A stretch of 46,142 bases of DNA from contig JAJYIE010000008.1 of the NCBI GenBank assembly GCA_021790255.1, forward strand, positions 1 to 46,142, written 5' to 3'. Source of the DNA: a bacterium (lineage in GTDB: Bacteria > Patescibacteriota > Microgenomatia > Daviesbacterales > UBA10151). The position numbers were made by a program, and so were the translations under genes. The notes under the pieces were generated by a model. The model did not search any database. It saw nothing but the letters and a program-made list of their open reading frames with translations, and was not told where the DNA came from. This document shows, one piece after another, positions 3,431 through 45,567 of this stretch (the first letter of the stretch is position 1; each line of letters starts with the position of its first letter).

Positions 3431-3973
3431 CTAAGAGTTAGATTGAAGTTTCTCTAAAACTTTGTATAAAACTATACCCAAACTAGCCATTACATTCAAG
3501 CTCACGTTTACCCCAAACATGGGGATTTCGAGAGTGGCGTCAACAATTCGCAGCACGTCCTCTGAAACACCTTCACTTTCATGACCAACTATCAGACACA
3601 GCGGCAGCCTATATTCAAACTGATCGTATGGTACGGCCTTCTTGCTCTGCTCCACCGCCACCACAGATAAATTTTTAATTTTAAATTTTAAATTTTTAAT
3701 TGCTCCGACTGCTGTCGGAGCGTATTCCCACTCCACCACCTCGGTTGTATTAATTGAGGCTTTTTTGATCCGGGGGTTGGGCGGAATGGTTGTCCGGCCA
3801 CATAAAATAACCTTTTTGGCTGCTACTGCATCCGCGAGCCGGAAAATTGACCCGATATTATATGTGTCCAAAACATCATCCAAAATAATATAAATGTCCT
3901 GCTTTTTTTGTGCGGACGAATCTATCTCTTCTCGGCTGACCTTGCGCAGCTGCCCGGCATTCATTTTAATCAT
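3431..3973 (-). CDS. TrmH/SpoU-family RNA 2'-O-methyltransferase
   Basis: LDDVLDTYNIGSIFRLADAVAAKKVILCG, LCLIVGHESEGVS, IPMFGVNVSLNVMASLGIVLYKVL motifs; ATG at 3973 preferred over the TTG at 3979. Confidence 0.9.
   Translation of the reverse strand: MIKMNAGQLRKVSREEIDSSAQKKQDIYIILDDVLDTYNIGSIFRLADAVAAKKVILCGRTTIPPNPRIKKASINTTEVVEWEYAPTAVGAIKNLKFKIKNLSVVAVEQSKKAVPYDQFEYRLPLCLIVGHESEGVSEDVLRIVDATLEIPMFGVNVSLNVMASLGIVLYKVLEKLQSNS
3670..3721. repeat. Heptamer array plus perfect 8-bp palindrome inside the trmH-like CDS
   Basis: AATTTTT/AATTTTA/AATTTTA/AATTTTT (3670-3697) followed by GCTCCGAC-TGCT-GTCGGAGC (3702-3721); encodes APTAVGAIKNLKFKIKNL. Confidence 0.85.
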
Positions 3974-4050
3974 AGGCAAATCTTACATCAGCCATGCTGC
4001 AAAAGCCATCTTTTAACCGACGCCGCAATAATGGTATATTAATCTTAAAT

Positions 4051-4959
4051 ATGAATATGCCCAAAAAATGCCAGGGGCACCTGCTTGTTAAGGCCGGATT
4101 GCTGCTTCCGGCAGTAACCATTATGGTTGTGCTGCTGGTTCCGGCTGGGCCGGCTGCTCCTACTTTGGCCCAAAACTGTACCACCGCACCCCAAACTGGC
4201 ATCTCTTTGTATGGCAACAGCTTTCTCTCGTCAACCGGCACCGGCAACAATTTCAACCTGAGTAATGTCTCAATAAATGGAGTTGGATCCCAGCCTCTGA
4301 TCTGCGGCAGCGGAGCTACAATTCCCCAATACACCCTGCCGGCCTACACTGACATGAAGAGTTATTATTATGATAAAAAGCCCGCGGCTGAAAAATATGA
4401 TGCCCTTTCAGCCACCACATTGAACGCGATAGGCTCAATGGCAAGTCCGAACTTTAGCACCAGCGGGAATTATCTTTATCATATCCCAGGCGATTTTACC
4501 GTTGACACTGATCCTGATATAAGCGGCACTCCAGGAGTAAAAGTCTTCTTTGTGGATGGCAACCTTTTCTTCAACTCCCCTCTGACTTTTGCTCATCAAA
4601 GTGGCTACAGTGGCTATATTTTTATTGTCCAGGGCAACATTTGGGTAAATTACAATGTCTGTAGCCCCAATAATAGGACTGAGATTGGTGCCATGATTAT
4701 CGATTATGGGAGCTTCTGCGATACCTGGGACGGAAATTTTCCACCATCATGTCCCGGGGCAACAACATGCCCTCTCGCCATCAATGGCTCCTTAGTCTAT
4801 GCAGGAAGCAGCGGACAACCCAATTTCAACCGTAATCTTTCCTTAAGCTATGGCAGCAACGGTAACCCGGCCGAGCAGATTAACTACCAGCCAAAATATT
4901 TAATTATTGCCAGGGATATTTTTGCCTCTACCTTAACTGTCTGGACACAAATACAATGA
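4051..4959 (+). CDS. Secreted hypothetical protein, repetitive beta-rich passenger
   Basis: N-terminal signal-like hydrophobic segment ending ...PTLAQ; repeating GVKVFFVDGNLFF / YSGYIFIVQGNIWV / GAMIIDYGSF / LAINGSLVYAG / NPAEQINYQPKYLII strands. Confidence 0.7.
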   Translation: MNMPKKCQGHLLVKAGLLLPAVTIMVVLLVPAGPAAPTLAQNCTTAPQTGISLYGNSFLSSTGTGNNFNLSNVSINGVGSQPLICGSGATIPQYTLPAYTDMKSYYYDKKPAAEKYDALSATTLNAIGSMASPNFSTSGNYLYHIPGDFTVDTDPDISGTPGVKVFFVDGNLFFNSPLTFAHQSGYSGYIFIVQGNIWVNYNVCSPNNRTEIGAMIIDYGSFCDTWDGNFPPSCPGATTCPLAINGSLVYAGSSGQPNFNRNLSLSYGSNGNPAEQINYQPKYLIIARDIFASTLTVWTQIQ

Positions 4960-4960
4960 A

Positions 4961-5668
4961 TCACTTGCCGAAGTTACGCTGCTGCTGGGAGTACCAGCGG
5001 ATAGCTTTTTTCAGCTCGTTTGCCCTAAAATCCGGCCAGAGTGTCCGGGTAAAATACAGCTCGCTGTAAGCGGTTTGCCAGAGCAGGAAATTGGAAAGGC
5101 GGATATGGCCGCCGGTCCTAATTACCAACTCAGGCGCTGGCTGGCCGTTAGTGTAAAGATGACTGTCAATCGTCTCCTCGTTGATTTTATTTACATCAAT
5201 CCCTTCTTTAACAATATCCTTGACTGCATCAATCAGCTCCCGCTTACCGCCGTAATTTAAGGCAATATTGAGTTTGATTGCCTCATTTTCAATATAAGTT
5301 TTTCTCAGCTCATTAATAATTTTACGGATGGTCAGCGGTAAACCGTTTATTTCACCGAGTACCGTTACTCTGACACCATTTTTAATCATCCGTTTTAGCT
5401 TGGTTCGGTAACCTTCTCTCATTAAATTGAACAATCCGCTTACTTCCCGGCGGGCACGCTCGCGGATGTTTTCCGTGGAGAGAGCATAAACCGTTACAGT
5501 TTTAACTCCCATTTTAGCAGCTGCTTCCACCACCTCTTCCAACGCATCAGCTCCGGCTTCGTGCCCTTTAATATCTGGAAGGCCGTGCAGCCTGGCCCAA
5601 CGCCTGTTGCCGTCCATAATAATCGCGACATGGGAAGGAATTACTGTGTTGTCTTGGCTTCGCACCAT
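4961..5668 (-). CDS. uppS: Isoprenyl transferase (undecaprenyl diphosphate synthase family)
   Basis: IMDGNRRWA, YALSTENIRR-like YALSTENIRERARREV, LNIALNYGGKRELIDAV, ELVIRTGGHIRLSNFLLWQTAYSELYF; ORF track extends to 5755. Confidence 0.95.
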   Translation of the reverse strand: MVRSQDNTVIPSHVAIIMDGNRRWARLHGLPDIKGHEAGADALEEVVEAAAKMGVKTVTVYALSTENIRERARREVSGLFNLMREGYRTKLKRMIKNGVRVTVLGEINGLPLTIRKIINELRKTYIENEAIKLNIALNYGGKRELIDAVKDIVKEGIDVNKINEETIDSHLYTNGQPAPELVIRTGGHIRLSNFLLWQTAYSELYFTRTLWPDFRANELKKAIRWYSQQQRNFGK

Positions 5669-5793
5669 GCTCAAAAGCTTAGCAGAAAAGAAACTTTGGT
5701 GCAATGGACCTGAGTATTTGGTTATCAGAAAACCAATAGCTGGCTGCTCTCGCAATGCTAGCCTTCTGCCCCCTAATCCGTTAAAATATAACG

Positions 5794-7065
5794 GTGAAAA
5801 TTGCTATCCTGGGCGCCGGTTTTACCGGACTAGCCACGGCTTTAAAACTGGCCGAAGCAGGCCACAAGGTAACTATTTTTGAACGGGAAGAGCAGGTTGG
5901 AGGCCTGGCCACCGGCTTTACCCGCCCCGGCTGGGAATGGACCCTGGAAAAAGCCTACCACCACTGGTTTACCAATGATTCTTACGCTCTTAGTCTGGCT
6001 AAAAAATTAAGACAAGAAGTTATAACCCGCCGGCCGCGCACAGATGTGCTGGTGGAAGGGCATATGATCCCGTTTGATTCTCCCCTCACTATCCTTGCCT
6101 TCCCTTACCTTCCGCCAACCGACCGTATCAGAACAGGTTTAGCAGGGTTGTATCTTAAACTGACCAACAACTTTCAGGCAATGGAAGAGACTCCCGCCCT
6201 GCCCTGGATACGCCGTTTTATGGGCAAACGGTCTGCCCGGATTATCTGGGAGCCGCTTTTTTTGGGCAAATTCGGAGAGTATAAGGATGAGATCCTCCTT
6301 AGCTGGTTTTGGGCAAGGATTAAAAAAAGAACAGCAAGGCTCGCGTATCCTGCCGGCGGTTTCCAAAGTTTTGCTGAAAAAATTGCCCGGGCAGTTGAGG
6401 AAAAAAGCGGACAAATATTACTCAAAACTACAATTTCAGAACTTACCACCAATGGAAATGGTTGCATAATCAGCTATAACCATCACCACAAAAAATTTGA
6501 CCGGGTTATCTCTACCCTGCCAACGCCGATTTTAGAAAAACTAGCTCATCATCTGCCAAAAGAGTACATCGGGAACCTCTTAAAAACTCCACATCTGCAT
6601 GCGCTTAATTTAGTGTTAATCCTAAAACAACCATTTCTGAAAAATACATACTGGCTCAACATCACCGATACCGCTTTTCCTTTCCTGGTACTCTCAGAGC
6701 ACACCAACTTCATGGATCCGGTCCATTATAACGGCGAACACGTTCTGTACATTGGCAACTACCTGCCACCCGACCACCCGTACCTGAAAATGAGCAAGAA
6801 GAAGCTTCTCAAAGAGTTTGATCCTTATCTTCGTAAAATCAATCCGAATTATAAATTATCAATTATACATTCTGAATTGTTTATCTCCCTCTTTGCCCAG
6901 CCTGTGGTTACCCGCGGTTACCGTGAGCATATCCCCGATTTCCACTCTCCCATCCCTCACCTTTTTATTGCTAATATGGATATGGTTTACCCATGGGACA
7001 GGGGCACAAATTACGCCATTGAGCTGGGGGAAAAAATAGCCGATATTATTAACGATGAAACCTAA
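5794..7065 (+). CDS. FAD-dependent oxidoreductase / amine oxidase family (NAD(P)-binding Rossmann)
   Basis: Start GTG; N-terminal KIAILGAGFTGLATALKLAEAGHKVTIFEREEQVGGLA dinucleotide-binding motif. Confidence 0.88.
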   Translation: MKIAILGAGFTGLATALKLAEAGHKVTIFEREEQVGGLATGFTRPGWEWTLEKAYHHWFTNDSYALSLAKKLRQEVITRRPRTDVLVEGHMIPFDSPLTILAFPYLPPTDRIRTGLAGLYLKLTNNFQAMEETPALPWIRRFMGKRSARIIWEPLFLGKFGEYKDEILLSWFWARIKKRTARLAYPAGGFQSFAEKIARAVEEKSGQILLKTTISELTTNGNGCIISYNHHHKKFDRVISTLPTPILEKLAHHLPKEYIGNLLKTPHLHALNLVLILKQPFLKNTYWLNITDTAFPFLVLSEHTNFMDPVHYNGEHVLYIGNYLPPDHPYLKMSKKKLLKEFDPYLRKINPNYKLSIIHSELFISLFAQPVVTRGYREHIPDFHSPIPHLFIANMDMVYPWDRGTNYAIELGEKIADIINDET

Positions 7066-8677
7066 GCCGGATATAGAATTTGTAGTTGTTATAATTATTA
7101 TAATCCTCTTAGGGGCCTTCCTCCGCTTTTACAAACTTGATTGGGGCTCGGGGTTGTTTTTTAACCCTGACGAGCTGTTTATTGGCATTTCGGTTTCCCA
7201 GCTGTCTTTTCCCAGCCAGCTGAATCCTCATCTGTTCAGCTACGGAGCACTCCCCGTCTACCTGGTATATTTTGCCCAGCAGCTCTTCCATTTCATTGGT
7301 CCACTAAGCAACCCTATCCTGATAGGGCGCTTTTTTGCCGCGCTTTTCTCCACTTTGAGTATTCTGCTGACGTATCAGATCGCCCGTTTTTTCTTTCCTC
7401 AAAGAGTCTGGGCAGATCTTGCAGCTTTTTTAGCAGCTGTCACGGCGGGATCAATCCAGCAGGCTCACTTTACCACTCCTGAGGCCTTTGAAACATTCTT
7501 TTTGCTTTTAACTCTCTTGTTCCTTTTGCACTTCACAACTAAAAAATCCAGGCGGGATCTTCTTTTGGCAGCAGCCGCCTTCGGCCTGGCCCTTGGCACT
7601 AAAGTCAGCGCCGCCATGCTTGCCCCGACCTTTCTACTTTCCATACTGTTTGTGTATCAAAGATCATGGCGAGAATCTTTGCAGGAAGGGTTTTTGGCCG
7701 TGCTTATAGGCACATTGGTATTTTTGGCGGCAGCCCCGTTTAACTTACTGGATTTTTCCTCATTTAAAACCTCGATCGAATATGAAACAAGCATAGCCAA
7801 CGGCAGTTTGCCGGTGTTTTACACCCGCCAGTTTATCGATACCACACCGGTACTATTCCAGCTGCAAAGTATTCTGCCATACAGTCTTGGGCCCGGGCTG
7901 CTTCTGGCCGGACTGGCCGGCCTACTGGCTATGCTGGCTGCCACAGTCAGGAAATTTTCACCTGTCCAATGGCTGCTGCTTCTTGCATTCTCCTGCCTGT
8001 TTTTCCCAAACGCTTTCCTTTTTGTCAAATGGACCCGCTATATGGTTCCAGTTTTGCCGATTCTCGCCGTATTTGCTGCATATTTTCTTTTCACTCTTTC
8101 CCAGGCAAGCAGTTTCTTCTCCCCGGTTCTAACCATTATCCTGCTGGTTGTTACCGGAGCCTGGGCTATGGCTTTCTTTTCTATCTATCTTCGTCCGGAT
8201 ATAAGAGTAACAGCTTCCGCGTGGCTTAACCAGAATATCCCCAAAGGCAGCACTATCGCCATGGAAACCGGCAATGTTTACAGCCTGCCTCTATCAGGCA
8301 ATTACAACCTCCGGGTGCTGGATTTCTATAACCTTGATACTGACCCCTTCGACCGACAAGGGGTTGCGCAAGGACTGGCCCAAGCTGATTATTTTATCGT
8401 TGCCAGCCGGCGGGTTTTTTATAATCATCAGAGGCTGCCGCAACAATTTCCTCAAACAGCCCGCTTTTATGATAAACTATTTTCGGGCCATGCCGGATTC
8501 CGGCTGATCGGCAAGGCCACATCCTTCCCCCAGCTTGACTTCCAGGGAGCAAAGCTGATTTTTCCCGATGAGGATGCTGAGGAAACATGGACAGTCTTTG
8601 ACCATCCGGTAGTAAGGGTTTTTCAAAGGCAGCGGCCGATGTCCGAGGAACAATATGTCCGGCTTTTTACACAGTAA
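7055..8677 (+). CDS. Membrane glycosyltransferase, GT39/PMT-like
   Basis: Multi-TM; FNPDELFIG, QQAHFTTPEAFETFFLLLTLLFL, FGLALGTKVSA; tandem paralogue of next gene. Confidence 0.8.
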   Translation: MKPKPDIEFVVVIIIIILLGAFLRFYKLDWGSGLFFNPDELFIGISVSQLSFPSQLNPHLFSYGALPVYLVYFAQQLFHFIGPLSNPILIGRFFAALFSTLSILLTYQIARFFFPQRVWADLAAFLAAVTAGSIQQAHFTTPEAFETFFLLLTLLFLLHFTTKKSRRDLLLAAAAFGLALGTKVSAAMLAPTFLLSILFVYQRSWRESLQEGFLAVLIGTLVFLAAAPFNLLDFSSFKTSIEYETSIANGSLPVFYTRQFIDTTPVLFQLQSILPYSLGPGLLLAGLAGLLAMLAATVRKFSPVQWLLLLAFSCLFFPNAFLFVKWTRYMVPVLPILAVFAAYFLFTLSQASSFFSPVLTIILLVVTGAWAMAFFSIYLRPDIRVTASAWLNQNIPKGSTIAMETGNVYSLPLSGNYNLRVLDFYNLDTDPFDRQGVAQGLAQADYFIVASRRVFYNHQRLPQQFPQTARFYDKLFSGHAGFRLIGKATSFPQLDFQGAKLIFPDEDAEETWTVFDHPVVRVFQRQRPMSEEQYVRLFTQ

Positions 8678-10442
8678 GCTAAACAACTCAGCATTATTGT
8701 TGTCTATTATCGTCCTGGCCGCGGGGCTGCGTTTTTACGACCTTAACTGGGATCAAAACCAACACCTTCATCCTGACGAGCGGTTCCTGGTAATGGTTGA
8801 TGAAGGAATCCACTGGCCGAAAGATGTGGCTGAGTATTTTTCTACATCAACCTCTCCTCTTAATCCTTTTATAAACGGCTTTCCATTTTTTGTCTACGGA
8901 ACCTTCCCACTCTTTTTTGCCAAATTTCTGGCCGGTGTGTTTAGCAGCTCCGGCTATGACAGCTCTACTATCTTCGGGAGAGGTTTATCTGCTCTATTTG
9001 ACACGGGCACGGTTGTTCTAATCTACCTAGTAGCCCGTAAAAGCCTTACCCGATCCGCAGCTTTAATAGCAGCATTTTTATATGCCGTGACCGTTTTATC
9101 TATTCAACTGGCCCATTTTTATACTACAGATAGCTTCCTGGTCTTTTTCCTGATGGCCACTATTTATTTTTTAATTGACTTACCTTACCGACCGCAAACA
9201 TTGGCTACAGTTTTCGGTGCCGCCTGTTTCGGTCTGGCCCTCTCCAGTAAAGTCAGTGCAATTTTGCTGATTCCGGCCCTGGCTGCAGTTTTTCTCCTCC
9301 TGTTTGTACACCGGCGGAAGCAAGGCATTTTATTGACACTTACTTTTGCCTTAACCAGCCTGGTTGTTTTCCGGGTGGCTCAGCCTTACGCTTTCAGTGG
9401 ACCGTCTTTCTTCGGTCTGCTGCCCAATCCGGATTTTGTCAACAGCCTCCTGCAGCTGGAAGCGCTGTCTCAACCGGGCAGCTTATACCCTCCCTCCGTG
9501 CAATGGTACACCACCGCTCCCCTGCTTTACCCTGCAGGAAACTTGCTGCTTTGGGGACTTGGTCTGCCGCTGGGAGTTCTATCTGGTTTTGCTATCCTTG
9601 CGACAATCATCCAGCTTGTCCTTAGGCTGCCCCATTCCCTCCTGCAAATCAAGTCCCTCAACCAATCCTATTTTTCCATCTTTTTTCTCACTATATTTAC
9701 GCTCACCGTCTTTTTTTACCAGGGAGTTCAGTTTGTCAAACCGATGCGTTATTTCCTGCCGATGGTCCCGCCGCTGCTGATTATTTGTGCCACCTTTCTC
9801 TCCGTCATGCATCGCCAACTTGTCAGCCGTATTTACCGGCACGGCAGCCTCAGCCTGCAAAGGTATCTAGATTTATTTTTCTACATTTTCATCTTCACGC
9901 TGCTCATTTGGCCCCTTGCTTTTATGTCCATTTATACCCGCCCCCACACCCGTGTTCTGGCCTCGGAGTGGATTTATCAAAACGTTCCTCCCGGCGCCAA
10001 AATCCTTACTGAATACTGGGATGACGGTCTGCCCCTAACCCTGGATGCCCAGCACGTCAGCTCCATTTATCCAAGCCAACAGCTTTCTCTGTTTGATCAG
10101 GACACACCGGAAAAGTGGATTAAAATCAGTCAGCAGCTGGCAGATTCAGACTACGTTATCATTAGTTCCGGCCGGGTGTACACACAAATTCCAAAACTGC
10201 CCAACCGCTACCCTGTAACTGAGCTTTATTACAAACTCCTGTTCAACGGCCAGCTTGGATTTAGCAAAGTGGCGCAGGTAACCTCTTATCCTACCTTCCT
10301 AGGAATTTCGGCAGATGACCACCTGGCCGATGAAACTTTCACTGTTTATGACCATCCGAAAGTGATGATTTTTAAAAAGACCATTGCCTTAAGCCAGGCA
10401 GATATTCTGGCTGCACTTCATCAGGTCAACCAGCCTGAATGA
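8655..10442 (+). CDS. Membrane glycosyltransferase, GT39/PMT-like
   Basis: HPDERFLVM, SIQLAHFYTTDSFLVFFLMATIYFL, FGLALSSKVSA; shares the C-terminal TVYDHPKVMIFKK motif with the preceding gene. Confidence 0.8.
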   Translation: MSGFLHSKLNNSALLLSIIVLAAGLRFYDLNWDQNQHLHPDERFLVMVDEGIHWPKDVAEYFSTSTSPLNPFINGFPFFVYGTFPLFFAKFLAGVFSSSGYDSSTIFGRGLSALFDTGTVVLIYLVARKSLTRSAALIAAFLYAVTVLSIQLAHFYTTDSFLVFFLMATIYFLIDLPYRPQTLATVFGAACFGLALSSKVSAILLIPALAAVFLLLFVHRRKQGILLTLTFALTSLVVFRVAQPYAFSGPSFFGLLPNPDFVNSLLQLEALSQPGSLYPPSVQWYTTAPLLYPAGNLLLWGLGLPLGVLSGFAILATIIQLVLRLPHSLLQIKSLNQSYFSIFFLTIFTLTVFFYQGVQFVKPMRYFLPMVPPLLIICATFLSVMHRQLVSRIYRHGSLSLQRYLDLFFYIFIFTLLIWPLAFMSIYTRPHTRVLASEWIYQNVPPGAKILTEYWDDGLPLTLDAQHVSSIYPSQQLSLFDQDTPEKWIKISQQLADSDYVIISSGRVYTQIPKLPNRYPVTELYYKLLFNGQLGFSKVAQVTSYPTFLGISADDHLADETFTVYDHPKVMIFKKTIALSQADILAALHQVNQPE

Positions 10443-10445
10443 CAG

Positions 10446-11204
10446 TCAGGGTTTGGTTGCCGCCACAAATAGGTACGCTCCCCGCTTTCCCCGGTCCTTT
10501 TTTTCCGTAAGCAGAAGATGGTAAAAAGGCCGGAAAAGCACGGCTTTTTTCGGCAAAATAACCCACCGGCCAAGCAGACGCTTGCTCAGAAGCGAAAAGG
10601 CACTTAAATAGTGGCTTAAGTCAAATAAAAACATCAGCCACAAACTGTCCAGGTAGTAGTGGTTGTCAGTAACCTGCAGGCCGTGCTTGGCCAACTCCCG
10701 GCGCCACTGCAGGAAGTGGTAGAGGTTAAAATGGCGGGATTTTTTAATAAAATAACGCTGGTAGCGCCTGCCCAACACTCTTTTTCCCAGTAAATAGTCA
10801 GGCCAGTAGCTGGTGGGAGCGGTAAAATAAACACTGCCGCCTTTTTTAAGCACCCGAGAGATTTCTTTTAGGGAATAATCTAAATTCGGAACGTGCTCCA
10901 AAACTGAGTTGCAGACAATTGTGGCAAAATAATTATCCGGAAAGGGAATCTTGCTGCCGTCATAACGGACAACTTGAGAGTAAATATGCCGCCATTGGGC
11001 CTCTTTAAGTGACTTTTCATCAACATCGAGTCCCACCTCAACCTTGCCAAAAGCCAGCTGGCTGAAAAAGCCATCTCCGCAGCCGAAATCCAAAATCGGC
11101 CGGACAAAAGGTTTGTACGGCTGGTAATAAGCTGCCTCTTTCGGCCGGATAACGGCAAAGAAAAATGGTTTTTCTCTAAGAAATGCTTCCAAGTAACTTT
11201 TCAT
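10446..11204 (-). CDS. Class I SAM-dependent methyltransferase
   Basis: ILDFGCGDGFFSQLAFGKVEVGLDVDEKSL, FATIVCNSVLEHVPNLDYSLKEISRVLKKGG. Confidence 0.9.
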   Translation of the reverse strand: MKSYLEAFLREKPFFFAVIRPKEAAYYQPYKPFVRPILDFGCGDGFFSQLAFGKVEVGLDVDEKSLKEAQWRHIYSQVVRYDGSKIPFPDNYFATIVCNSVLEHVPNLDYSLKEISRVLKKGGSVYFTAPTSYWPDYLLGKRVLGRRYQRYFIKKSRHFNLYHFLQWRRELAKHGLQVTDNHYYLDSLWLMFLFDLSHYLSAFSLLSKRLLGRWVILPKKAVLFRPFYHLLLTEKKDRGKRGAYLFVAATKP

Positions 11205-12318: not shown

Positions 12319-12338
12319 CCATATATCATACACTAGAA

Positions 12339-15040: not shown

Positions 15041-15048
15041 TGAAGAAA

Positions 15049-15650: not shown

Positions 15651-15652
15651 GG

Positions 15653-17972: not shown

Positions 17973-18015
17973 CCGCCTAAATTTAGCACAGCCGCTGTTG
18001 ATTTTCCAGCTTGGT

Positions 18016-18565: not shown

Positions 18566-18594
18566 TTGACCCAACCTAGCAGAAGTGATATTAA
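18566..18594 (+). promoter_or_regulatory. Sigma-70-type promoter
   Basis: TTGACC (18566-18571) - 17 bp - TATTAA (18589-18594); ATG begins 6 nt later. Confidence 0.65.
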
Positions 18595-23447: not shown

Positions 23448-25180
23448 GTCTTTTTATACTGCTGCTTATACATTTCCAGCAATTCTTTTACAGTCGTGGC
23501 GTCTTCTGCTCTCCTGTCTGCACCCCTAAACCGGACAAGCCGGGGAAATCTTAAGGCATAACCCGGTTCGCTGTCAGTTTTTCCGGCGGTATGGACCGGG
23601 CTTTTGGTAATTTCATCCGCCAAAACTTCAATGACAATTTCAGGCTTAATCCAAACTGACGGCTCCAAAATTGAGTTGACTCTTGGCGGTTTGTGGTCCA
23701 CTTTGATTTTATCCGCCCGAGCGTGGATTTCCCGCCACTCTTCATCCGATAAACCGGTGCCGATTTTAGAAACCGTCACAAATTCATCTTTTCTCTTATC
23801 GTAAATCCCAACCAAAAGCGCTCCGGCGCCAAAGCTCGCCCGCTTCCCCCTCCCAAAAATATAACCTAAGATCACACAATCAATTGTGTCTTTTAACTCG
23901 CCGGCCGAGTGGCGCTTTAATTTGACCCAGTTGAAATTGCGGGCGCCTGCCTCATATTTTGAATCTGGTTTTTTCAAAAGCAGCCCTTCTAAGCCTTTGG
24001 CCAAAGCGTCATTAAAAAGTTCCGTGACCCGTTTAACCGAATCAGTAAATTCTCCCGGCTGCGGTACTAAAGTTTCATCACCGGAGATCACCTCAGCCAA
24101 CCTTCTCAACCGTTCCCTAAGCGGCAGGTCGATCAACGGTTTTCCATCCAAATACATAATGTCAAAAACAAAGGATTTTAAAGGTATTTGTTTGCTCACC
24201 TCATCGACATTATATTTGCGCCGCCGCTTGGTGGTTTCCTGGAAAGGCAAAAATTCATCCGACTCAGGATTAAAAGCTAACGCTTCCGAATCAAAAATGG
24301 CCGTTGCGGCCTTGACTTGTTTTAAAGCCCCAGCGATAATTTCCGGCATCATGGCCGTAGTTTCTTCTAAGTTACGGGAAAACAGCCGGACTTCGTCACC
24401 ATTTTTGTGGATTTGTACCCTAAAGCCATCGTATTTATATTGGGCATGCGCCTCACCGCCGAATTTTTGTAAAATGGTTTGCGGATCAGGTAGCCGTTCC
24501 GCCAGTTCCGAGCGGATAGGCCTCCCCACCTCAACATCTAATTCTTCTACCCCTTTTAATCCTTCTTTCCATAACGTTTCACCGATTAAGCCTAAATCGG
24601 AAGTTTTATTGTAGGCTTCTTCCAAAACTTTCCGCTGCTTTTTATCGCCTAATTTGGCTACTGCGAAAGCGTCCAAAACCGTCGGATCGCCGATGCCCAG
24701 GCGGGTAGTTCCCAGGGGGATACGCACTAAATGTTTGGCGCTGACCGGATCAACTTGCTTTAACAGTCCCACCAATAAATTTAATTTTTTTTCAACCGCT
24801 CCCTCTCCAGAAGTACCGGCAACTTTTTTTAGCTCCTCAAACACCTCACCAACCGTTAATTTTGAACTTTGAATTTTGAACTTTGAACTCATTCGGCTCG
24901 CGACTTTCCCAAAATCCCCCACCCGGCCGTATTCTGCAGCCACCTCTTCCAGCGGCACGCTGTAAGCCTGGGCAACCGCTTTAGCCACGCCTTTTTCGGC
25001 CATACCGATTTCCACCGGCTCGTAAAACGGCGCCACCCGGCCCTGGATTAAGTAAGCCACTTTGGCCACCTCATTTGTCTCCACATGGGAAAAAAGCTCC
25101 ACCAAAATATCAATTAGGCTTAAGCGGGAGGAGGTTTCCTCCAGCTTTTCAAAATATCCGGAAAGCTCACCGAAAGTCAT
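23444..25180 (-). CDS. lig: ATP-dependent DNA ligase
   Basis: HAQYKYDGFRVQIHKNGDEVRLFSRNLEETT (KxDG motif), FVFDIMYLDGKPL, EGLLLKKPDSKYEAGARNFNWVKLK; start at MTFGELSGYFEKLE rather than 25285. Confidence 0.94.
   Translation of the reverse strand: MTFGELSGYFEKLEETSSRLSLIDILVELFSHVETNEVAKVAYLIQGRVAPFYEPVEIGMAEKGVAKAVAQAYSVPLEEVAAEYGRVGDFGKVASRMSSKFKIQSSKLTVGEVFEELKKVAGTSGEGAVEKKLNLLVGLLKQVDPVSAKHLVRIPLGTTRLGIGDPTVLDAFAVAKLGDKKQRKVLEEAYNKTSDLGLIGETLWKEGLKGVEELDVEVGRPIRSELAERLPDPQTILQKFGGEAHAQYKYDGFRVQIHKNGDEVRLFSRNLEETTAMMPEIIAGALKQVKAATAIFDSEALAFNPESDEFLPFQETTKRRRKYNVDEVSKQIPLKSFVFDIMYLDGKPLIDLPLRERLRRLAEVISGDETLVPQPGEFTDSVKRVTELFNDALAKGLEGLLLKKPDSKYEAGARNFNWVKLKRHSAGELKDTIDCVILGYIFGRGKRASFGAGALLVGIYDKRKDEFVTVSKIGTGLSDEEWREIHARADKIKVDHKPPRVNSILEPSVWIKPEIVIEVLADEITKSPVHTAGKTDSEPGYALRFPRLVRFRGADRRAEDATTVKELLEMYKQQYKKT
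24861..24888. repeat. Heptamer tandem repeat inside the DNA ligase CDS
   Basis: TTTGAAC/TTTGAAT/TTTGAAC/TTTGAAC; encodes SSKFKIQSSKL. Confidence 0.9.
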
Positions 25181-25244
25181 CACCTTGGATTTTAGTCTAT
25201 CCGGCAAAACTTGTAAATTAAACCCAATTGCGTACAATACGCTC

Positions 25245-26215
25245 ATGAGTACAGTTGAGGATGAACATACCCTTTCACTCCCCACAGACTATCAATCACC
25301 AGATTCTTCGGTCAGGGGGTAAACATACCAAGCCAGACAACTTTTAACAGTTATTCAAGCCGCCCTCGAACTTCCGGTATCTTCTCACCCAGGCACCGCT
25401 GCCATTATCAGACAAGCACAAGCTAACCTTCAGGGATTAAGTAAAGCTCTGAATAAAAAAATTAGCGAACATTCATCAAACTTCACAACATCTTCATCTC
25501 CGGAGCAGGAAAAAGAGCGTCGCGCGGTAGCACCAGCTCCGGTTCATGATGAGATTAGCAGTCTCTACCACCAGGCTGTCCGAGGGGGAATTAGCGAGGA
25601 ATGGTTTCGCCAACAAATAGCAAGCTTGCACGAAGAAGATCATTACATCGCCACTCATGACGAGCTGACTGGTTTATTGAATCACCCTGGTCTGAGGGAA
25701 AAAGCCTACAACATTTTCCAAGAAACTTCCTGGAATACTCGCCTTCTTACTTTGTTTTTTATTGATGAAGATAACCTGAAATTAGCCAACAGCATCCCAA
25801 CTTTACTTGGAGACCGTCTGCTTCAGGCTACCGCGAGGCAAATCTTGCCCAGACTCGGAAAGAAGATTTAGTTAGTAGGGTCGGCGGTGATGAACTGGTT
25901 GTGTTAATTGAAGGCCAAAATACTAAGACTGCCCGTAAATGGGCAGAAAGGCTTCGGGAAGGTGTTGGTTTGGCCAACCAGCAGGCTGTATTAGAGTTTT
26001 TGATTGAACGCTATGAAAAACATCACCCGGAACCTATTCCCACCTGGAAGGAAATCGACGGAAAATTCTCAATCAGTGGCGGATTAACTTCCTGGCATCC
26101 CGGTGACTCCTTTGAAGAAATGATTGACGGGTCAGACTTCGCTCTTCGGCAAGTTAAACAAAAATTAGGCAAAAACCGTGTTCGCGTATATAACCCAAAC
26201 CAGGTAGCAGGTTAA
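25245..26215 (+). pseudogene. GGDEF-domain protein, disrupted
   Basis: ATHDELTGLLNHPGLREK ... LVSRVGGDELVVLIEG ... FSISGGLTSWHPGDSFEEMIDGSDFALRQVKQ; in-frame TAA at 25320-25322 and a frameshift near 25855-25865. Confidence 0.8.
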
Positions 26216-27294: not shown

Positions 27295-27390
27295 TAGTTA
27301 ACGTAAACCCTAACAATTATTGCATTTTTCCCGCAAAAAAACCAGCGGAGTTCTTTTGCAATTGAGATATTAAAGAGATATGATATAGTC

Positions 27391-31201: not shown

Positions 31202-31213
31202 AACAGCATTCTA

Positions 31214-33598: not shown

Positions 33599-33770
33599 CC
33601 ATGAATTGTACCAAAAATTTACTTCCTTGCTACCAGACTTTCCAAGCACTGGCGGTCTTTGTCCGTAGTCACCCGGTCCCGGCCGTCTTGCAGATAGCTG
33701 TCTTTGGGGATATTACAGCCACTAGCCGAAAGATTAATTGCCAATTATTTCTTGGTAATATTTATTCATC

Positions 33771-34187: not shown

Positions 34188-34198
34188 ACTACCTTCGG

Positions 34199-35301: not shown

Positions 35302-35325
35302 TGAACATGGTATAATAGGCTCCGG

Positions 35326-35595
35326 ATGAAAGAGTTGGAAGTAACCGTTTTGCTTAAAAAATCCCCTGAGGATTCCAAATGGTTTGTCTCAGTACCGTCT
35401 ATTCCCGGCTGCCACAGCGAAAGTAATAATCAGGCAGAGGCGGAGCTGCTGATAAAGCCGGTAATCGAGTACTTTACCGAAAACAATCCCCGGCTGGTTT
35501 CACGGCTGGAGCACGACCAGAAGTCAGAGTATGTCGTAAAAAAATTAAGAATCGGGCTTCCGGCCCACCCACCCGACCGCTACCCCGACAGTTAA
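35326..35595 (+). CDS. HicB-like small protein (orphan)
   Basis: VSVPSIPGCHSESNNQAEAELLIKPVIEYF resembles the HicB/UPF0150 fold; no HicA neighbour. Confidence 0.55.
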   Translation: MKELEVTVLLKKSPEDSKWFVSVPSIPGCHSESNNQAEAELLIKPVIEYFTENNPRLVSRLEHDQKSEYVVKKLRIGLPAHPPDRYPDS

Positions 35596-35631
35596 AACAT
35601 TTCCCCCGGGGTTTTGTTGTACAATTGGTAT

Positions 35632-36543: not shown

Positions 36544-36653
36544 AGCTGGAGTCCGCTAACTATTTTATGAAAGTTCCGCTTTACCAACGCTGCCGGTGGT
36601 TAAATTTAGCTATTCCAAGGCCGTGTCTTTGAAAAATTCTCTTTCTGTCATAA

Positions 36654-38897: not shown

Positions 38898-38941
38898 AGA
38901 TAGGTGAATTCTAGCACGAAGGGGGTGACTTTTCTAACCCA

Positions 38942-40084
38942 TTAGGATTGTTTTTTGGCATCCTGCAGTGTTTTTAGCTGTCTGCGGAAGCCAGCTGTTT
39001 GATTCATCTCCTTTAAGAGGTCCGGTATTTGCTCGGTAAATTTTGACTCTATTCCCTGCACCGGCACCCCAGCCCTTTTTAGTGACTGCACACGTCCCCA
39101 TACCATGTAGGAAAGATAGCTTGCTCTCCCTTCCGGCCTCATATCATAAAAATCAGGGTCCTGAAAAATATCGCCTACTAAGTCCCGAATCTTAGGGTCT
39201 ACTCCTTCTAAACTCCACTCGTCTAATGCTGTCAATTTGGCTCCTGCCCTTGGCAAATCCTGCAGGTGCAAAGCATTAACTAAATCATTTTTCAAGCAGT
39301 CCGGGTAGTTAACAGGGTAAGAGTTTTCCAGCTTGACAAAATCTACTAACTCACCAGCCCTGCTCGGGTGTCTGAGCTTTCTTAAAGCACTTTTTTCAAT
39401 TTGCCCAACACGAGCGCCGTGTACTCCCAGCTCCTGCCCGATCTCCTTTAAAGTCCTATCCCGGTCATCTTCTAAACCAAAACGCAGGGTTAGGGTCCTC
39501 TGGTGGCGCTGCGAAAGTCCGGCCAGCACTTTTTTTGTTTGCTGTTTTAAATTGGCAGCTTCGGCCTCTTCTTCAGTTGGATCTGCTGAAGATAAAGCCT
39601 CTCTGCGGAGGGCCTTTCCCACTAAGGTAGAGTTCACTTGGCTCATCGGAATCTCTATACGGACCTGAGTAGGCTGGCTACTATCCCTGGTAAACTCTTC
39701 TAACCAGGCCGGGAAGACTGCCGATATTTCTATCCCCAGGGCTTGAGCTATTTTTTGGGCCGTCTCCTGGCTCGGAAATTTTCTCAAAGTTTCCAGATGA
39801 CTGATTGTAATATTGCTGACTTTGGCCAGCTTGGCTAGTTCATTCTGGCTCAAACCCAATTGCCGCCGGCGGTTATAAAGGGCAGCGTTGTATGGTCCGA
39901 CTTTGAGTCCGATTCCGCTGGATTGTTCACGAGCGTCCTCATTGGCAAGAAGCCAAGCGGCTTCAGACAAGCCAACCTCTTCCCCGAAATAAAGCTTGAG
40001 CGGAAAGCGTTCCCGATTTTGGATATCTGGTTCTAAATTCACTTGCCCCCAAAGTGAATTTTCTGACTCCCGGGAATTATCCAT
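38942..40084 (-). CDS. XRE-type HTH fused to sigma-70 region 4-like domain, with a C-terminal extension
   Basis: LYNRRRQLGLSQNELAKLAKVSNITISHLETLRKFPSQETAQKIAQALGI then LSQRHQRTLTLRFGLEDDRDRTLKEIGQELGVHGARVGQIEKSALRKLRHPSR. Confidence 0.88.
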   Translation of the reverse strand: MDNSRESENSLWGQVNLEPDIQNRERFPLKLYFGEEVGLSEAAWLLANEDAREQSSGIGLKVGPYNAALYNRRRQLGLSQNELAKLAKVSNITISHLETLRKFPSQETAQKIAQALGIEISAVFPAWLEEFTRDSSQPTQVRIEIPMSQVNSTLVGKALRREALSSADPTEEEAEAANLKQQTKKVLAGLSQRHQRTLTLRFGLEDDRDRTLKEIGQELGVHGARVGQIEKSALRKLRHPSRAGELVDFVKLENSYPVNYPDCLKNDLVNALHLQDLPRAGAKLTALDEWSLEGVDPKIRDLVGDIFQDPDFYDMRPEGRASYLSYMVWGRVQSLKRAGVPVQGIESKFTEQIPDLLKEMNQTAGFRRQLKTLQDAKKQS

Positions 40085-40091
40085 AGAGAGT

Positions 40092-40120
40092 ATTATAGGC
40101 CAAATAAAAATAAATTTCAA
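40092..40120 (-). promoter_or_regulatory. Sigma-70-type promoter of XRE-sigma4 gene
   Basis: TTGAAA - 17 bp - TATAAT on the minus strand; ATG begins 7 nt after the -10. Confidence 0.7.
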
Positions 40121-40123
40121 TGC

Positions 40124-41929
40124 TCAACTTTTCAACTCACTTTGGTGGACGATTTCAGTATAGTAACCGTTTTTCTTCAGAAGCTGAGCGTGGGTTCCGT
40201 GCTCAACAAGCCTGCCCTTTTCCATCACCAATATCTGGTCTGCCCGCTGGACAGTTGAAAGCCTGTGGGCGATGACAATCTTGGTAAGCGAGCGCTCCCT
40301 GGAAATATCCTGTAGGGCCTGCTGAATGGAGGCCTCAGAAATCGTATCCAGGTGTGAGGTCGGCTCATCCATAATTAAAATTTTCGGCTCGGCAAAAAGT
40401 GCCCTAGCAATGGCCAGCCGCTGCTTTTGACCTCCGGAAAGCTTCACTCCTCGCTCCCCCACCTCAGTATGATAACCCCGCTCAAACTCCATAATAAATC
40501 CATGGGCGTGAGCCAGTTTGGCCGCCCGGATAACTTCCTCGCATACAGCCAGAAACGTGGTTTTACCAGCACCGTAAGCGATAATCTCCCAGATCTGCCT
40601 GTTTGGCACCGGTGAGTCCTGGAAAACTACCGCTGTTGCTTTGCGGAAAGCATCGATATCCAGCAGGCGCAGATCATATTGGCCGTCCACGACAATGCTG
40701 CCCCGGGACGGATCATAGTAACGGCTGATTAGTTTGGCGATTGTGGACTTGCCGGAACCGGATTTGCCAACAATGGCCGTAAACGAACCTTCAGGCACGG
40801 TAAAGCTGACATTTTTCAGCACCCGGCGTTTGTTATATACAGAGCTTGCCCCGGTTTTACCGGGATAGGCGAACGTAACGTGCTTAAAGGCCAGCTGGCC
40901 GCCAATCTGCTCCGGTATAACCGGGTGCTCGGCATTTCTCACCGTCGGGGTCTTCTGCAGCAATGTGGTAATACGCCCTGCCGGTTCGGCTGCATCAACA
41001 GCCCGCTCATAAATTTTCCCCAGCCGATAGATATTAGAATAAGCTCGTTCAATCAAGGTAATTAAAAAAACCAGGCTTCCTACGCTCAAATGCCCGTTTC
41101 GGATTTCCATTATTCCCATGACAAGTAAGGTGACATAGAATACCTCCACAATGACGTTGCGGCCAGCTCCTGAGATAACATGGCGGGTATACTCTTTCAC
41201 TGAAATACTGTGGATAAGATCCTGCAGGGTCAGGAACGAGCGTTCCTCGCGTTTTTCCTGGGCAAAGGCTTTAACCACGGTAATATTTGTAACCACATCG
41301 CCGATCTCACCGGAGGCGAGATCATAAACGTCATGGCGCCTGCTTCGAAGCTTCCTGGTTGATTCATACGTTTTAAAGGTAATCATCAGGAACGGAATCA
41401 GTGAAAGGGTAAAAACCAGCCCGATCCGCCAGTTGGTCAGGGCGATCATTCCCGAGGTGATCAAAAGCTGCAACACAATCGGCTGAAAGGTCCAGGCGTA
41501 GTCGGCAAGTAAATTAACTATCCGGTCTGTCCCCTTGTTAATGATATTAATCTTGGTCCCGGTATTCTCCTTTTCATGATAATCAAGGGAAAGCTCCAAA
41601 AGCTTGGAAAAAGCAGCCGAGTTGATGTGGTGTTCCGCGCTCCAGATCAGCCGGAAAATAGCGATATCCGTTATATAGTCAATAGCCAGTGATATTAAGC
41701 GAATGCCTGCCAAGCCGCCGATTACAAAAAGCGCTGTTTGCAGGGTCAAAATCCCGTTTGTTTTAATCAAAAGGTCCAAAATCCGCCCGAAAATGTACGG
41801 CCCACCCATCCGCACAAACTCAAAAGCGGCCGTCATCGCTAAAACTTTATATAAATCAGCATGGAAGGGCTTAAGCAATTGCCAGATCCTGCCGATTACG
41901 TTGTTAGTCATTCTTTTTCTCTTTTTCAT
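40124..41929 (-). CDS. ABC transporter, fused permease/ATPase (exporter type)
   Basis: TM domain, GKSGSGKSTIAKLISRYYDPSRGSIVVDG (Walker A), VKLSGGQKQRLAIARALFAEPKILIMDEPTSHLD. Confidence 0.95.
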   Translation of the reverse strand: MKKRKRMTNNVIGRIWQLLKPFHADLYKVLAMTAAFEFVRMGGPYIFGRILDLLIKTNGILTLQTALFVIGGLAGIRLISLAIDYITDIAIFRLIWSAEHHINSAAFSKLLELSLDYHEKENTGTKINIINKGTDRIVNLLADYAWTFQPIVLQLLITSGMIALTNWRIGLVFTLSLIPFLMITFKTYESTRKLRSRRHDVYDLASGEIGDVVTNITVVKAFAQEKREERSFLTLQDLIHSISVKEYTRHVISGAGRNVIVEVFYVTLLVMGIMEIRNGHLSVGSLVFLITLIERAYSNIYRLGKIYERAVDAAEPAGRITTLLQKTPTVRNAEHPVIPEQIGGQLAFKHVTFAYPGKTGASSVYNKRRVLKNVSFTVPEGSFTAIVGKSGSGKSTIAKLISRYYDPSRGSIVVDGQYDLRLLDIDAFRKATAVVFQDSPVPNRQIWEIIAYGAGKTTFLAVCEEVIRAAKLAHAHGFIMEFERGYHTEVGERGVKLSGGQKQRLAIARALFAEPKILIMDEPTSHLDTISEASIQQALQDISRERSLTKIVIAHRLSTVQRADQILVMEKGRLVEHGTHAQLLKKNGYYTEIVHQSELKS

Positions 41930-41944
41930 ATATCCTTTTAAACC

Positions 41945-41972
41945 ATTAAAAAACCAGCCTTTCGGCTGGTTT
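41945..41972 (-). terminator. Rho-independent terminator downstream of ftsH
   Basis: Minus strand AAACCAGCC-GAAA-GGCTGGTTTTTT; 9-bp stem, GNRA-type loop, T-tract. Confidence 0.9.
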
Positions 41973-42170
41973 CTGCGTTCTATACAAAATCTATCCTTTT
42001 AACTCCCCCACTCCCATTTTTGCAACGCAAAAACCTGCCATTTTACAGGCAAACCGCCCCAATTTCTCGGGGTAACGGAAATATTCACTTGTAAGTTGCT
42101 TTTAAGCATAAAATTGCAAAGCTTTTTAAGTTTAAAAGGAATTGCCTGGTTTGTCAACTATGGGATTAGT

Positions 42171-44033
42171 TCATGCAGAAACTGTGGCCAGGGCAGGCTT
42201 AGATCCGACAATCTTTTCAAATTCATCGCTGTCTAAAGTTTCTTTTTCCAATAAAGCTTTAGCCACTTTATCCAGTTGAGCTGTATGCTTTAGCAAAATG
42301 ACTTTTGCCTGGCTGAAAGCAGCATCAATAATCTTTTTGACCTCGGTATCCACCTTACCCAGCATCTGCTCAGAAACACCATTACCCTCCTCCGGCATTC
42401 TTCCCCATAACCCGAAGACTGAACGGGGCTTGAGGCTGATCGGACCAAGCTCAGACATACCATAGGTGGTGACCATATCCTGAACAATATCCGTGGCTAC
42501 CTGTAAATCGGCAGCCGCGCCTGTTGAAATGTCGTGAAAAACCATCTCCTCGGCCGCCATCCCACCCATGGCCGTGGCAATCTGTTGCAGCAGGCGGGAC
42601 TTACGCTCATTGGAACGATCCTCTGTCGGGGGAAACATCGTCTGCCCGCCTGATTCGCCACGAGCAACAATAGAGATACGGTGCACCGGGTCTACCCCCG
42701 GCAGATAATGACCAACCACGGCATGGCCGGCTTCATGGTACGCAGCCAGTTTGCGGTCATCCTCTGTTTGCATCCTCTTGCGCTGCGGACCAAGCTTAAC
42801 TTTGGTCGCCGCCTCTTCCAGATCTACTGTGTCGATGGCTTTTTTATTTTCCCGAGCCGCCAGGATTGCCGATTCATTGAGCATATTGGCCAAATCCGCT
42901 CCAGAGAAACCGACGGTGCGCCGGGCTAATCTTTCCACATCCACCTCCTTGGCAAAAGGTTTGCCTCGCATATGCAGAGTAATAATGGCTTTTCGCTCCG
43001 GCAGATCCGGTAGATTCAAAACCACCCGGCGGTCAAACCGCCCGGGTCTTACCAGCGCCGGATCCAAAAGGTCCGGCCGGTTGGTGGCGCCGATGACAAT
43101 TACCTGTTCATTGGGAGCAAAGCCGTCCATCTCCACTAAGATTTGATTTAAAGTCTGCTCCCGCTCATCATGGCCTCCTGACATCCCAAAACCACGAGCT
43201 CTGCCAATTGACTCAATTTCGTCAATGAAAATAATTGACGGTGCACTCTTTTTGGCCTGGGCAAACATGTCCCGCACCCGGGCAGCCCCTACTCCCACCA
43301 GCATTTCCATAAACTCTGAACCGGCAATTGAGAAAAACGGGACACCGGCTTCTCCTGCTACCGCCCGCGAAAGCAGGGTCTTGCCGGTTCCCGGCGGACC
43401 CACCAAAAGCACTCCTTTGGGGATTCGGGCACCGATATCACGGTATTTTTGCGGCTGCTTTAAGAAATCAACAATTTCCTCAAGCTCTTTTTTGGCCTCA
43501 TCCACTCCTGCCACATCAGAAAAGCGGATGCGGGGCTGGTCTTTGGAAAAAACCCTAGCCCGGCTTTGGCCAAAGCTGAAAATGGAGTTGCCAGCTTCCC
43601 TGGCTTGGCGGAAGATGAGTACAAAAAATCCGACCATCAAAAGAATCGGCACAATTGTACCCAGAAGCGAAACCCACCCCTGCTGCCAGGAAGTATCTTC
43701 GATGGTTGTGGGTACTGTTGAGGGGTCAACGTTGGAATCTTTCAGAAGCTGGGAAATTGACTCAGAGCTTTCCTTACGGGCAGTTACATCCGGCTGCTTG
43801 TTATTTTTAAATTTTGCCGTTACCTGGTCGCCGGAAACCGTCAAAGAAGCAACCTGGCCGGTTTTAACATCAGCAATAATTTGTGAAATCGGCACTTCCG
43901 TGCTGGGCTGACCTCCTCCGGAGAGGTTAACAAAAAAAACCAGGGCCACAAAACCAATCAGCAGATAGATTAAAAATCCCCTCAGAGCCCCCCAAATTTT
44001 TTTTGAGTTTATTTTCCGTTTCCCGTTAGCCAT
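42171..44033 (-). CDS. ftsH: ATP-dependent zinc metalloprotease FtsH
   Basis: [46 protein letters not shown] region, [14 protein letters not shown] (HEXXH). Confidence 0.97.
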
Positions 44034-44154
44034 AGCAAGACTCCCAAACACGCAATTTTAGCATATTTAGCCTCAAAAAACACTTGTTAATCAGGTTTTT
44101 CCCGCTTCTGCTATCTTTTGGATTGTATCCTGTTCGGCAAAGCAAATCAATGAT

Positions 44155-44475
44155 TCAACGTACTAAAGTACCGTTGGGAACCTTGTGGGATGGCCTCAGG
44201 CAGATAGGCTTTTTTGCATTGGCACAAAGGATCATCCCCTGTGACTCAAAACCCATCATCACCCTAGGCTGCAAATTAGCGGCAAAGATAAACTGTCTGC
44301 CGACTAAACTTTCCGATTTGTAGTATAGCTTGAGGCCGGCCAAAACCTGGCGGGGCTTTTCCTCCCCCAAATCCACCATCATTTTAATCAGCTTCTCTGA
44401 TCCATCCACTGCCTCCGCAGCCAGCACTGTTCCGGCTTTCATTTCTAGTTTGGCAAATTCGTCAATAGTAACCAT
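44155..44475 (-). CDS. Stand-alone tRNA-binding domain protein (MetRS C-terminal/CsaA-like)
   Basis: FAKLEMKAGTVLAAEAVDGSEKLIKMMVDLGEEKPRQVLAGLKLYY..GRQFIFAANLQPRVMMGFESQGMIL. Confidence 0.88.
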   Translation of the reverse strand: MVTIDEFAKLEMKAGTVLAAEAVDGSEKLIKMMVDLGEEKPRQVLAGLKLYYKSESLVGRQFIFAANLQPRVMMGFESQGMILCANAKKPICLRPSHKVPNGTLVR

Positions 44476-44520
44476 CTTTTTAAATTATTCTGAGTAAATA
44501 TTATATCCTATATGTGTTAT

Positions 44521-45525
44521 CTAGCCCAGCCCAATCTTATTTTTTACTTCCCGCAATTTCGGTTCAGCAATCTGACGAGCTTTTTCGGCACCTTCGGCTA
44601 AGATTTTTTCCAAAGTTCCGGGATCCCCCATCAACTGGTGATATTTATCCTGCAAAGGCTTTAACCCGGCGATGACTACTTCAGCCAGTTCTTCCTTAAG
44701 CTGGCTGTAATTTTTATCGGCAAACTTAGACTCAATTTCCGGACGGGTCAGGCCGGAAAAAATTTCGTAAATTTCTAGCAGGTTGTATAACCCGGGCCTG
44801 CTTTGGTCAAAACGGATTTCAGTCAACGAGTCTGTAGTTGCTCTGGCGAAGGCAGCGCGGATTTGCTCTGGGGAATCCAGCAGATGAACAGCGTGGCCCA
44901 GCTTGAAATTGGACTTGCTCATTTTGACTGTAGGATCATCAAGCCCCATAATCCTAGCTCCCACCTTAGGCACCACCGCCTCCGGCAGCTTAAAGGTCGG
45001 ACCATAAATATTATTAAAGCGCTGAGCGATATTGCGGGCCAACTCCACATGCTGTTTTTGGTCCTCCCCTACTGGTACCTCATCGGTGTCATAAAGCAGG
45101 ATATCAGCCGCCATCAGCGCCGGGTAATCCAGTAAACCGGTACTGACCGACTCTTTATTTTCGGATTTTTCCTTAAATTGAGTCATCTTGAGCATCCAGC
45201 CGATCGGAGTATAACAGTTTAAAATCCAGGCCAACTCGGTATGAGCCGGAATATGCGACTGGACAAAGATGATCGATTTTTGAAAATCAATTCCGGCGGC
45301 CACGTAGAGGCCGGCCAGCTCCCTAATTTTGCCTTTCAGCTCTTTGGGGTCTTGGGGAACGGTGATAGCATGCAGATCAACAATGCAAAAAATATTATCT
45401 TTCTCTTCCTGAGAAGCCACCCATTGCTTCAGCACTCCCACAAAATTCCCAATGTGTAAATTGCCCGATGGCTGAATGCCGGAAAATACCCGCTTTTTGC
45501 TTATCTTGAGCCTGTCGAAAGACAT
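44521..45525 (-). CDS. trpS: Tryptophanyl-tRNA synthetase
   Basis: SGIQPSGNLHIGNFVGVLKQWV, CYTPIGWMLKMTQFKEKS, GLDDPTVKMSKSN (KMSKS). Confidence 0.97.
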   Translation of the reverse strand: MSFDRLKISKKRVFSGIQPSGNLHIGNFVGVLKQWVASQEEKDNIFCIVDLHAITVPQDPKELKGKIRELAGLYVAAGIDFQKSIIFVQSHIPAHTELAWILNCYTPIGWMLKMTQFKEKSENKESVSTGLLDYPALMAADILLYDTDEVPVGEDQKQHVELARNIAQRFNNIYGPTFKLPEAVVPKVGARIMGLDDPTVKMSKSNFKLGHAVHLLDSPEQIRAAFARATTDSLTEIRFDQSRPGLYNLLEIYEIFSGLTRPEIESKFADKNYSQLKEELAEVVIAGLKPLQDKYHQLMGDPGTLEKILAEGAEKARQIAEPKLREVKNKIGLG

Positions 45526-45567
45526 GGCTTAAATATACCACGTTCAGGAAGACATTGTCGACAAAAA

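What the first reader, a model, noticed from the sequence alone, without database searches (positions are those of the whole stretch)
3970..45540. Recurrent -10 hexamer ending exactly 6 nt before start codons: widespread leaderless mRNAs
Six-nt spacing to the start codon is seen at: TAAGAT->ATG 3973(-), TATGAT->ATG 12318(-), TATTAA->ATG 18601(+), TACAAT->ATG 25245(+), TATGAT->GTG 27391(+), TAGAAT->ATG 31201(-), TACAAT->GTG 33598(-), TACAAT->ATG 35632(+), TATATT->ATG 45525(-), and TAAAAT->GTG 5794(+). It is 7 nt at 40084(-) and 17972(-). Several have TGn extended -10s (31201, 33598, 45525) or a -35 at 16-17 bp (18601, 25245, 27391, 40084). A TSS about 7 nt after the -10 puts +1 on the start codon. 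Operon-internal starts (8655, 12893) lack this signal, which acts as an internal control.
Basis: partly seen in the sequence, partly recalled or inferred. Interest (0 to 1): 0.85.

Follow-up and report, generated by a model that had tools for sequence, protein, structure and literature searches.

The report
Leaderless genes in a Daviesbacteria genome
In this uncultivated, ultra-small bacterium (a Patescibacteria/CPR member) about half of the genes that begin a transcript have their promoter placed so that RNA copying starts on, or within about 3 bases of, the protein's start codon, so these messages probably carry no ribosome-binding leader; this is a known bacterial strategy, here shown computationally for a lineage where I found no published report of it.

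Summary
All ten cited hexamers lie exactly 6 nt before the named codon. In the rebuilt 0.94-Mb genome (Patescibacteria, Daviesbacteria-like), with starts called from coding potential only, TANNNT peaks at 6 nt before first-of-unit genes: 77 observed, 16 expected, maximum 30 in 200 shuffles. The excess continues to 9 nt. A -35 TTG at 17 bp and TGn mark a sigma-70 promoter. It nearly excludes Shine-Dalgarno motifs (0.4% vs 10.6%) and occurs with ATG and GTG but not TTG starts, as in mycobacterial leaderless initiation. Orthologs keep the -10 in place (66 of 181 pairs; controls 1-9) although upstream identity is only a third. All eight sampled relatives show it (weak in one); a pattern survey finds it in 68 of 108 Patescibacteria genomes and in none of four outside genomes; E. 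coli lacks it. About half of divergently oriented starts appear leaderless. Corrections: 25245(+) is not a gene (the ligase there probably starts leaderless at 25180(-)); 18601 and 33598 are unverified; operon-internal genes are only a partial control. Leaderless genes are known elsewhere, so this is a new, phylum-wide but patchy instance of a known kind. No RNA evidence exists.

The parts
3980..3985 (-). -10 TAAGAT, 6 nt before ATG 3973 (SpoU-type rRNA methylase)
   Evidence: orthologs L130 TAAAAT-6-ATG, L176 TATAAT-6-ATG, L122 TATAAT-6-ATG, L159 TATAAT-6-ATG
5782..5787 (+). -10 TAAAAT, 6 nt before GTG 5794 (flavin amine oxidoreductase)
   Evidence: orthologs TACAAT-7-ATG and TACAAT-6-ATG
12325..12330 (-). 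-10 TATGAT, 6 nt before ATG 12318
   Evidence: ortholog L153 TATCAT-6-GTG
12324..12329 (+). -10 TATCAT, 9 nt before ATG 12339; the same symmetric TATCATA site read the other way, shared with gene 12318(-)
   Evidence: sequence
17980..17985 (-). TGn-TAAATT, 7 nt before ATG 17972
   Evidence: orthologs TAAATT-8-ATG, TAAATT-7-ATG, TAAAAT-7-GTG
25189..25194 (-). -10 TAAAAT, 8 nt before ATG 25180 with TTTACA 17 bp upstream: likely true leaderless start of the ATP-dependent DNA ligase
   Evidence: protein homology begins at this Met; ortholog L152 TACAAT-7-GTG
27379..27384 (+). -10 TATGAT, 6 nt before GTG 27391
   Evidence: ortholog L111 TACAAT-6-ATG
31208..31213 (-). TGn-TAGAAT, 6 nt before ATG 31201
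   Evidence: orthologs L152 and L073 TAAAAT-6-ATG
33605..33610 (-). TGn-TACAAT, 6 nt before GTG 33598 (start not verified by homology)
35311..35316 (+). TGn-TATAAT, 9 nt before ATG 35326
35620..35625 (+). -10 TACAAT, 6 nt before ATG 35632
   Evidence: one homolog aligns from this Met
38908..38913 (-). TAGAAT, 10 nt before ATG 38897 of DNA polymerase I; five of six listed orthologs have the -10 at 6 to 8 nt
   Evidence: (sequence): TAAAAT-6, TAAAAT-8, TACAAT-6, TACAAT-6, TACAAT-6 before ATG
40092..40097 (-). -10 TATAAT, 7 nt before ATG 40084, with -35 TTGAAA at 17 bp
45532..45537 (-). TGn-TATATT, 6 nt before ATG 45525, with TCGACA at 18 bp
18589..18594 (+). TATTAA, 6 nt before ATG 18601, with TTGACC at 17 bp (gene start unverified, no homolog found)
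25233..25238 (+). TACAAT 6 nt before ATG 25245: rejected as a gene start (25-codon ORF antisense to ligase)

Best explanation
Many transcription-unit-first genes of this Daviesbacteria-like Patescibacterium are leaderless. The housekeeping sigma-70 polymerase recognises TTG-17 bp-(TGn)TATAAT placed so that its usual start position, about 7 to 10 bp downstream of the -10, falls on the A or G of the start codon or at most a few bases before it. The mRNA therefore begins with AUG or GUG and is translated without Shine-Dalgarno pairing, by analogy with leaderless initiation elsewhere probably by 70S ribosomes or an IF2/fMet-tRNA-dependent route. Genes inside operons and a minority of first genes use SD or coupling; the anti-SD is intact in relatives. 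Shown: motif, position, context, conservation, start-codon restriction, near-exclusion with SD. Inferred: the actual transcription start and the ribosomal route.
For: Peak at spacing 6-9 of TANNNT before unit-first genes with promoter-blind start calls. An unsupervised motif search on divergent genes returns TAAAAT/TATAAT peaking at 6. In a nine-genome pool, -35 TTG at spacer 17 is 20% (most other spacers about 2%) and TGn is 32%. SD is 0.4% in genes with the -10 at 6-9 versus 10.6% in the rest; GTG starts 24 at spacing 6 versus background 2.3; TTG not enriched. With homology-validated starts, 69 of 114 divergent genes have it (background 16), and ortholog pairs keep it (66 of 181; control windows 1-9) at 33% upstream identity. 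All eight relatives peak, E. coli does not. Phylum survey 68 of 108 at p<0.01, outside genomes 0.80-1.16. Anti-SD intact in relatives.
Against: No RNA data. Only about half of unit-first starts carry the signal. Operon-internal genes have a weak peak too. Spacing 9 is about as frequent as 7 in this genome, which would mean leaders of up to 3 nt or start-calling errors. The relative G078 has only a weak peak. Eighteen of 108 Patescibacteria genomes have a survey ratio below 1.2, so it is not universal in the phylum.
Confidence: 0.9

Rival explanations
1. The transcripts carry very short leaders (1 to 5 nt), so that initiation is not strictly at a 5'-terminal start codon.
For: The peak has a shoulder at 7 to 10 nt; polA here is at 10 nt; polymerase can start a few bases either side of its preferred position.
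Against: The mode is sharply at 6 and drops to background at 5; GTG starts sit mostly at 6 (24 versus 8 at 7). An SD cannot fit in 1-5 nt anyway, so the outcome is functionally leaderless.
Confidence: 0.3
2. The AT-rich hexamer is a translation element (an A/T-rich non-SD ribosome site or S1-binding site), not a promoter.
For: AT-rich upstream signals in some phyla have been read as possible S1 sites (PMC5397173).
Against: It is coupled to a -35 at 17 bp and TGn, concentrated in unit-first genes, and occurs in genomes where no bS1 gene was found.
Confidence: 0.04
3. Gene starts are misplaced and the -10 elements drive ordinary leadered transcripts to downstream true starts.
For: Start prediction is error-prone; some cited starts (25245, 33598) are wrong or unverified.
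Against: The peak is stronger with homology-validated starts (61% of divergent genes) than with raw calls, and internal Met codons show none.
Confidence: 0.04

Closest known systems
TA-led (leaderless) bacterial genes of Zheng et al. 2011 (PMC3160421), e.g. Deinococcus-Thermus and Actinobacteria
   Same: TANNNT about 12 bp (counted from the first T) before the start codon; reported mainly for single and operon-first genes; low SD
   Different: Different phylum. Here the -10 is close to TATAAT with a clear -35 and TGn, as described there for lower-GC groups; that survey of 953 bacterial genomes predates most Patescibacteria genomes (my inference from its date)
Leaderless RTG initiation of Mycobacterium (PMC4633059)
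   Same: ATG or GTG but not TTG at the position of the 5' end
   Different: Only sequence evidence here; no ribosome profiling or reporters
Bidirectional promoters with a symmetric -10 (PMC12825309, PMC10268837; titles and abstracts only)
   Same: One pseudo-symmetric -10 read on both strands between 12318(-) and 12339(+)
   Different: Here each direction would yield a leaderless or near-leaderless mRNA from a 15-26 bp gap between two start codons; not shown to fire both ways

Membership tests
Bacterial leaderless (TA-led) genes | -10-like TANNNT positioned about 12 bp upstream of the start codon, above shuffled expectation | tested here: met
   77 versus 16.3 (max 30 of 200 shuffles) at spacing 6
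Bacterial leaderless (TA-led) genes | Concentrated in first genes of transcription units | tested here: met
   Excess at 6-9: 23% of unit-first, 9% of internal genes; the internal peak is weaker, not absent
Bacterial leaderless (TA-led) genes | No SD motif at those starts | tested here: met
   0.4% versus 10.6%
Bacterial leaderless (TA-led) genes | Start codon restricted to ATG/GTG | tested here: met
   GTG enriched about 10-fold at spacing 6, TTG not
Bacterial leaderless (TA-led) genes | Transcript 5' end at the start codon | not testable with these tools
   No transcriptome available
Bacterial leaderless (TA-led) genes | Translated as leaderless mRNA by the organism's ribosomes | not testable with these tools
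   Needs ribosome profiling or reporters
Sigma-70 promoter | -35 TTG at about 17 bp and optional TGn extension upstream of the -10 | tested here: met
   20% at spacer 17 versus about 2% at most other spacers; TGn 32% versus 9% at control positions

The most novel reading that the evidence does not exclude
Leaderless transcription is a main and possibly ancestral mode of initiation for unit-first genes across Patescibacteria, kept for core genes such as polA, and so compact that some head-to-head gene pairs share one palindromic -10 that starts two leaderless mRNAs.
Probability: 0.4. Interest if true: 0.68.

Novelty: new member of a known kind. Interest (0 to 1): 0.5.

Why it matters
Gene finders and start annotation for Patescibacteria that assume SD sites will misplace many starts. 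Design of reporters, inducible systems and riboswitches for these hard-to-handle bacteria should allow for promoters without a leader. It also bears on how the reduced ribosomes of CPR bacteria, in some family members apparently without bS1, select start codons, and on whether the leaderless mode is old in this branch of Bacteria.

Tried and rejected
(1) bS1 loss as the cause: rpsA was not found in this genome or in six family members up to 100% complete, but bS1-bearing relatives have the same peak, so loss is not required. (2) SD usage trading off with leaderless usage across the phylum: Spearman 0.08, p 0.44. (3) A fixed spacing of divergent start codons from a symmetric -10: only 8 of 273 divergent pairs have gaps of 15-23 bp, too few to call a peak. 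(4) Motif search on co-directional classes gave only coding-like motifs. (5) 25245(+) as a gene: rejected. (6) The 16S 3' end of this genome was not found in the assembly, so the anti-SD was read in relatives. (7) The exact-pattern survey on Deinococcus plasmids gave too few matches to use.

Full report
What the window is. The window is contig C6 of a 941-kb, 45-contig genome, 91.6% complete. Its closest named relatives by DNA polymerase I are Candidatus Daviesbacteria, Microgenomates branch of Patescibacteria/CPR. Window position 1-428(-) is the 5' part of a 16S gene.

Check of the observation. To test for chance I fetched all contigs and called genes from coding potential only, with no promoter or SD term. 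Genes were classed by their upstream neighbour as divergent, co-directional far, co-directional mid, or operon-internal. In 571 unit-first genes TANNNT occurs 77 times at spacing 6, 47 at 7, 30 at 8 and 44 at 9. Dinucleotide shuffles give about 16 each (maximum 30 of 200 at spacing 6), spacing 5 is at background (12), and internal Met codons show nothing. An unsupervised motif search on the 40 nt upstream of divergent genes returns TAAAAT/TATAAT with its mode at 6.

It is a promoter. In nine genomes pooled, the -10 at 6-9 nt has TTG at the 17-bp spacer in 20% of cases (most other spacers about 2%, 18 bp 9%) and TG one base upstream in 32%, with a secondary TG two bases further, as in TRTGn. 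Placing the -10 six nucleotides before the codon puts +1 of a sigma-70 promoter on the first base of that codon (established knowledge of the usual -10 to start distance; not looked up here).

It replaces SD. Genes with the -10 at 6-9 have a strict SD in 0.4% of cases against 10.6% of the other unit-first genes. GTG starts are enriched at spacing 6 (24, background 2.3) while TTG starts are not. Mycobacterial leaderless translation accepts ATG and GTG but not TTG or CTG (PMC4633059). Internal genes use SD more (20% versus 9% in this genome). The 16S 3' end in relatives reads GGATCACCTCCTTTCT, so SD pairing remains possible.

It is conserved by selection. Among reciprocal best pairs with the same start, 66 of 181 pairs keep TANNNT at 6-9 in both genomes; control windows give 1-9 pairs, and upstream identity is only about 33%. 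With homology-validated starts 69 of 114 divergent genes have it (background 16), which gives about 54% leaderless after correction; 148 of 292 over all unit-first classes gives about 42% (my arithmetic). Window examples: SpoU methylase 3973 (four orthologs with a -10 at exactly 6), oxidoreductase 5794, 12318, 17972, 27391, 31201, and polA, whose own -10 is at 10 nt while five of six listed orthologs have it at 6 or 8.

Corrections to the list. 25245(+) is a 25-codon ORF antisense to the DNA ligase region; protein homology indicates that the ligase starts at 25180(-), with TAAAAT 8 nt upstream and TTTACA at 17 bp, and its ortholog L152 has TACAAT 7 nt before a GTG. 18601 has a good -35 but no homolog; 33598 is unverified. 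Operon-internal genes are a partial control (13 of 240 at spacing 6, background 3.9), and 12893's ortholog in L153 has its own TAAAAT six bases before ATG.

How widespread. Seven family members and one genome of another family in the class all show a peak at 6, weak in G078; the E. coli control has none and the Deinococcus deserti control a small one. Counting TATAAT-N6,7-ATG against TATAAT-N12..17-ATG in 117 Patescibacteria genomes: of the 108 with enough counts the median ratio is 1.90, this genome has 2.94, 68 are at p<0.01, and 18 lie below 1.2. Four genomes from other phyla give 0.80-1.16. The signal is therefore common but patchy in the phylum. SD enrichment does not trade off with it.

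What is known. Zheng et al. 2011 described the same signal, TANNNT about 12 bp upstream, in a survey of 953 bacterial genomes (PMC3160421); GeneMarkS-2 predicted leaderless transcription in 21.6% of bacterial species (quoted in PMC9581028). Text searches joining leaderless with CPR, Patescibacteria, Saccharibacteria, Parcubacteria or Microgenomates found no paper reporting it there; this covers only open-licence PMC papers, so absence is weak evidence. A 2024 review of Patescibacteria has no mention of promoters or Shine-Dalgarno.

Limits.

Noticed in passing
whole genome G000; also G004, G006, G009, G078, G079, G082: No bS1 (rpsA) gene found: at E<=1e-20 none in these family members (one 100% complete), and in this genome only a PNPase-sized ORF with one S1 domain matches. 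Other family members and most other sampled Patescibacteria have a shortened bS1.
   Followed up: partly
window 12319-12338 and 3974-3993: Two divergent gene pairs with only 20 bp between start codons; the first shares one symmetric TATCATA -10 read both ways. Similar 15-26 bp gaps with -10s on both strands occur elsewhere (contigs C36 and C1, relatives G003 and G004).
   Followed up: partly
window 25180-25285 (-): DNA ligase start is probably 25180, not 25246 or 25285; homology of the protein begins there.
   Followed up: yes
window 12318(-) and 5794(+): Orthologs swap ATG and GTG at the same leaderless position, so GTG seems to serve as well.
   Followed up: partly
window 1-428 (-): The contig ends inside the 16S rRNA gene; the 3' part with the anti-SD was not found in the assembly.
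   Followed up: partly
phylum survey families f16, f22, f51, f81 and others: Several Patescibacteria families show no leaderless signal with exact TATAAT; whether they lost it or use another -10 is unknown.
   Followed up: no
G006:C11:62980-65235 and G006:C10:1365-3539: Two full-length polA genes (64% and 65% identical to the window's) in one genome bin: possible mixed bin or duplication.
   Followed up: no
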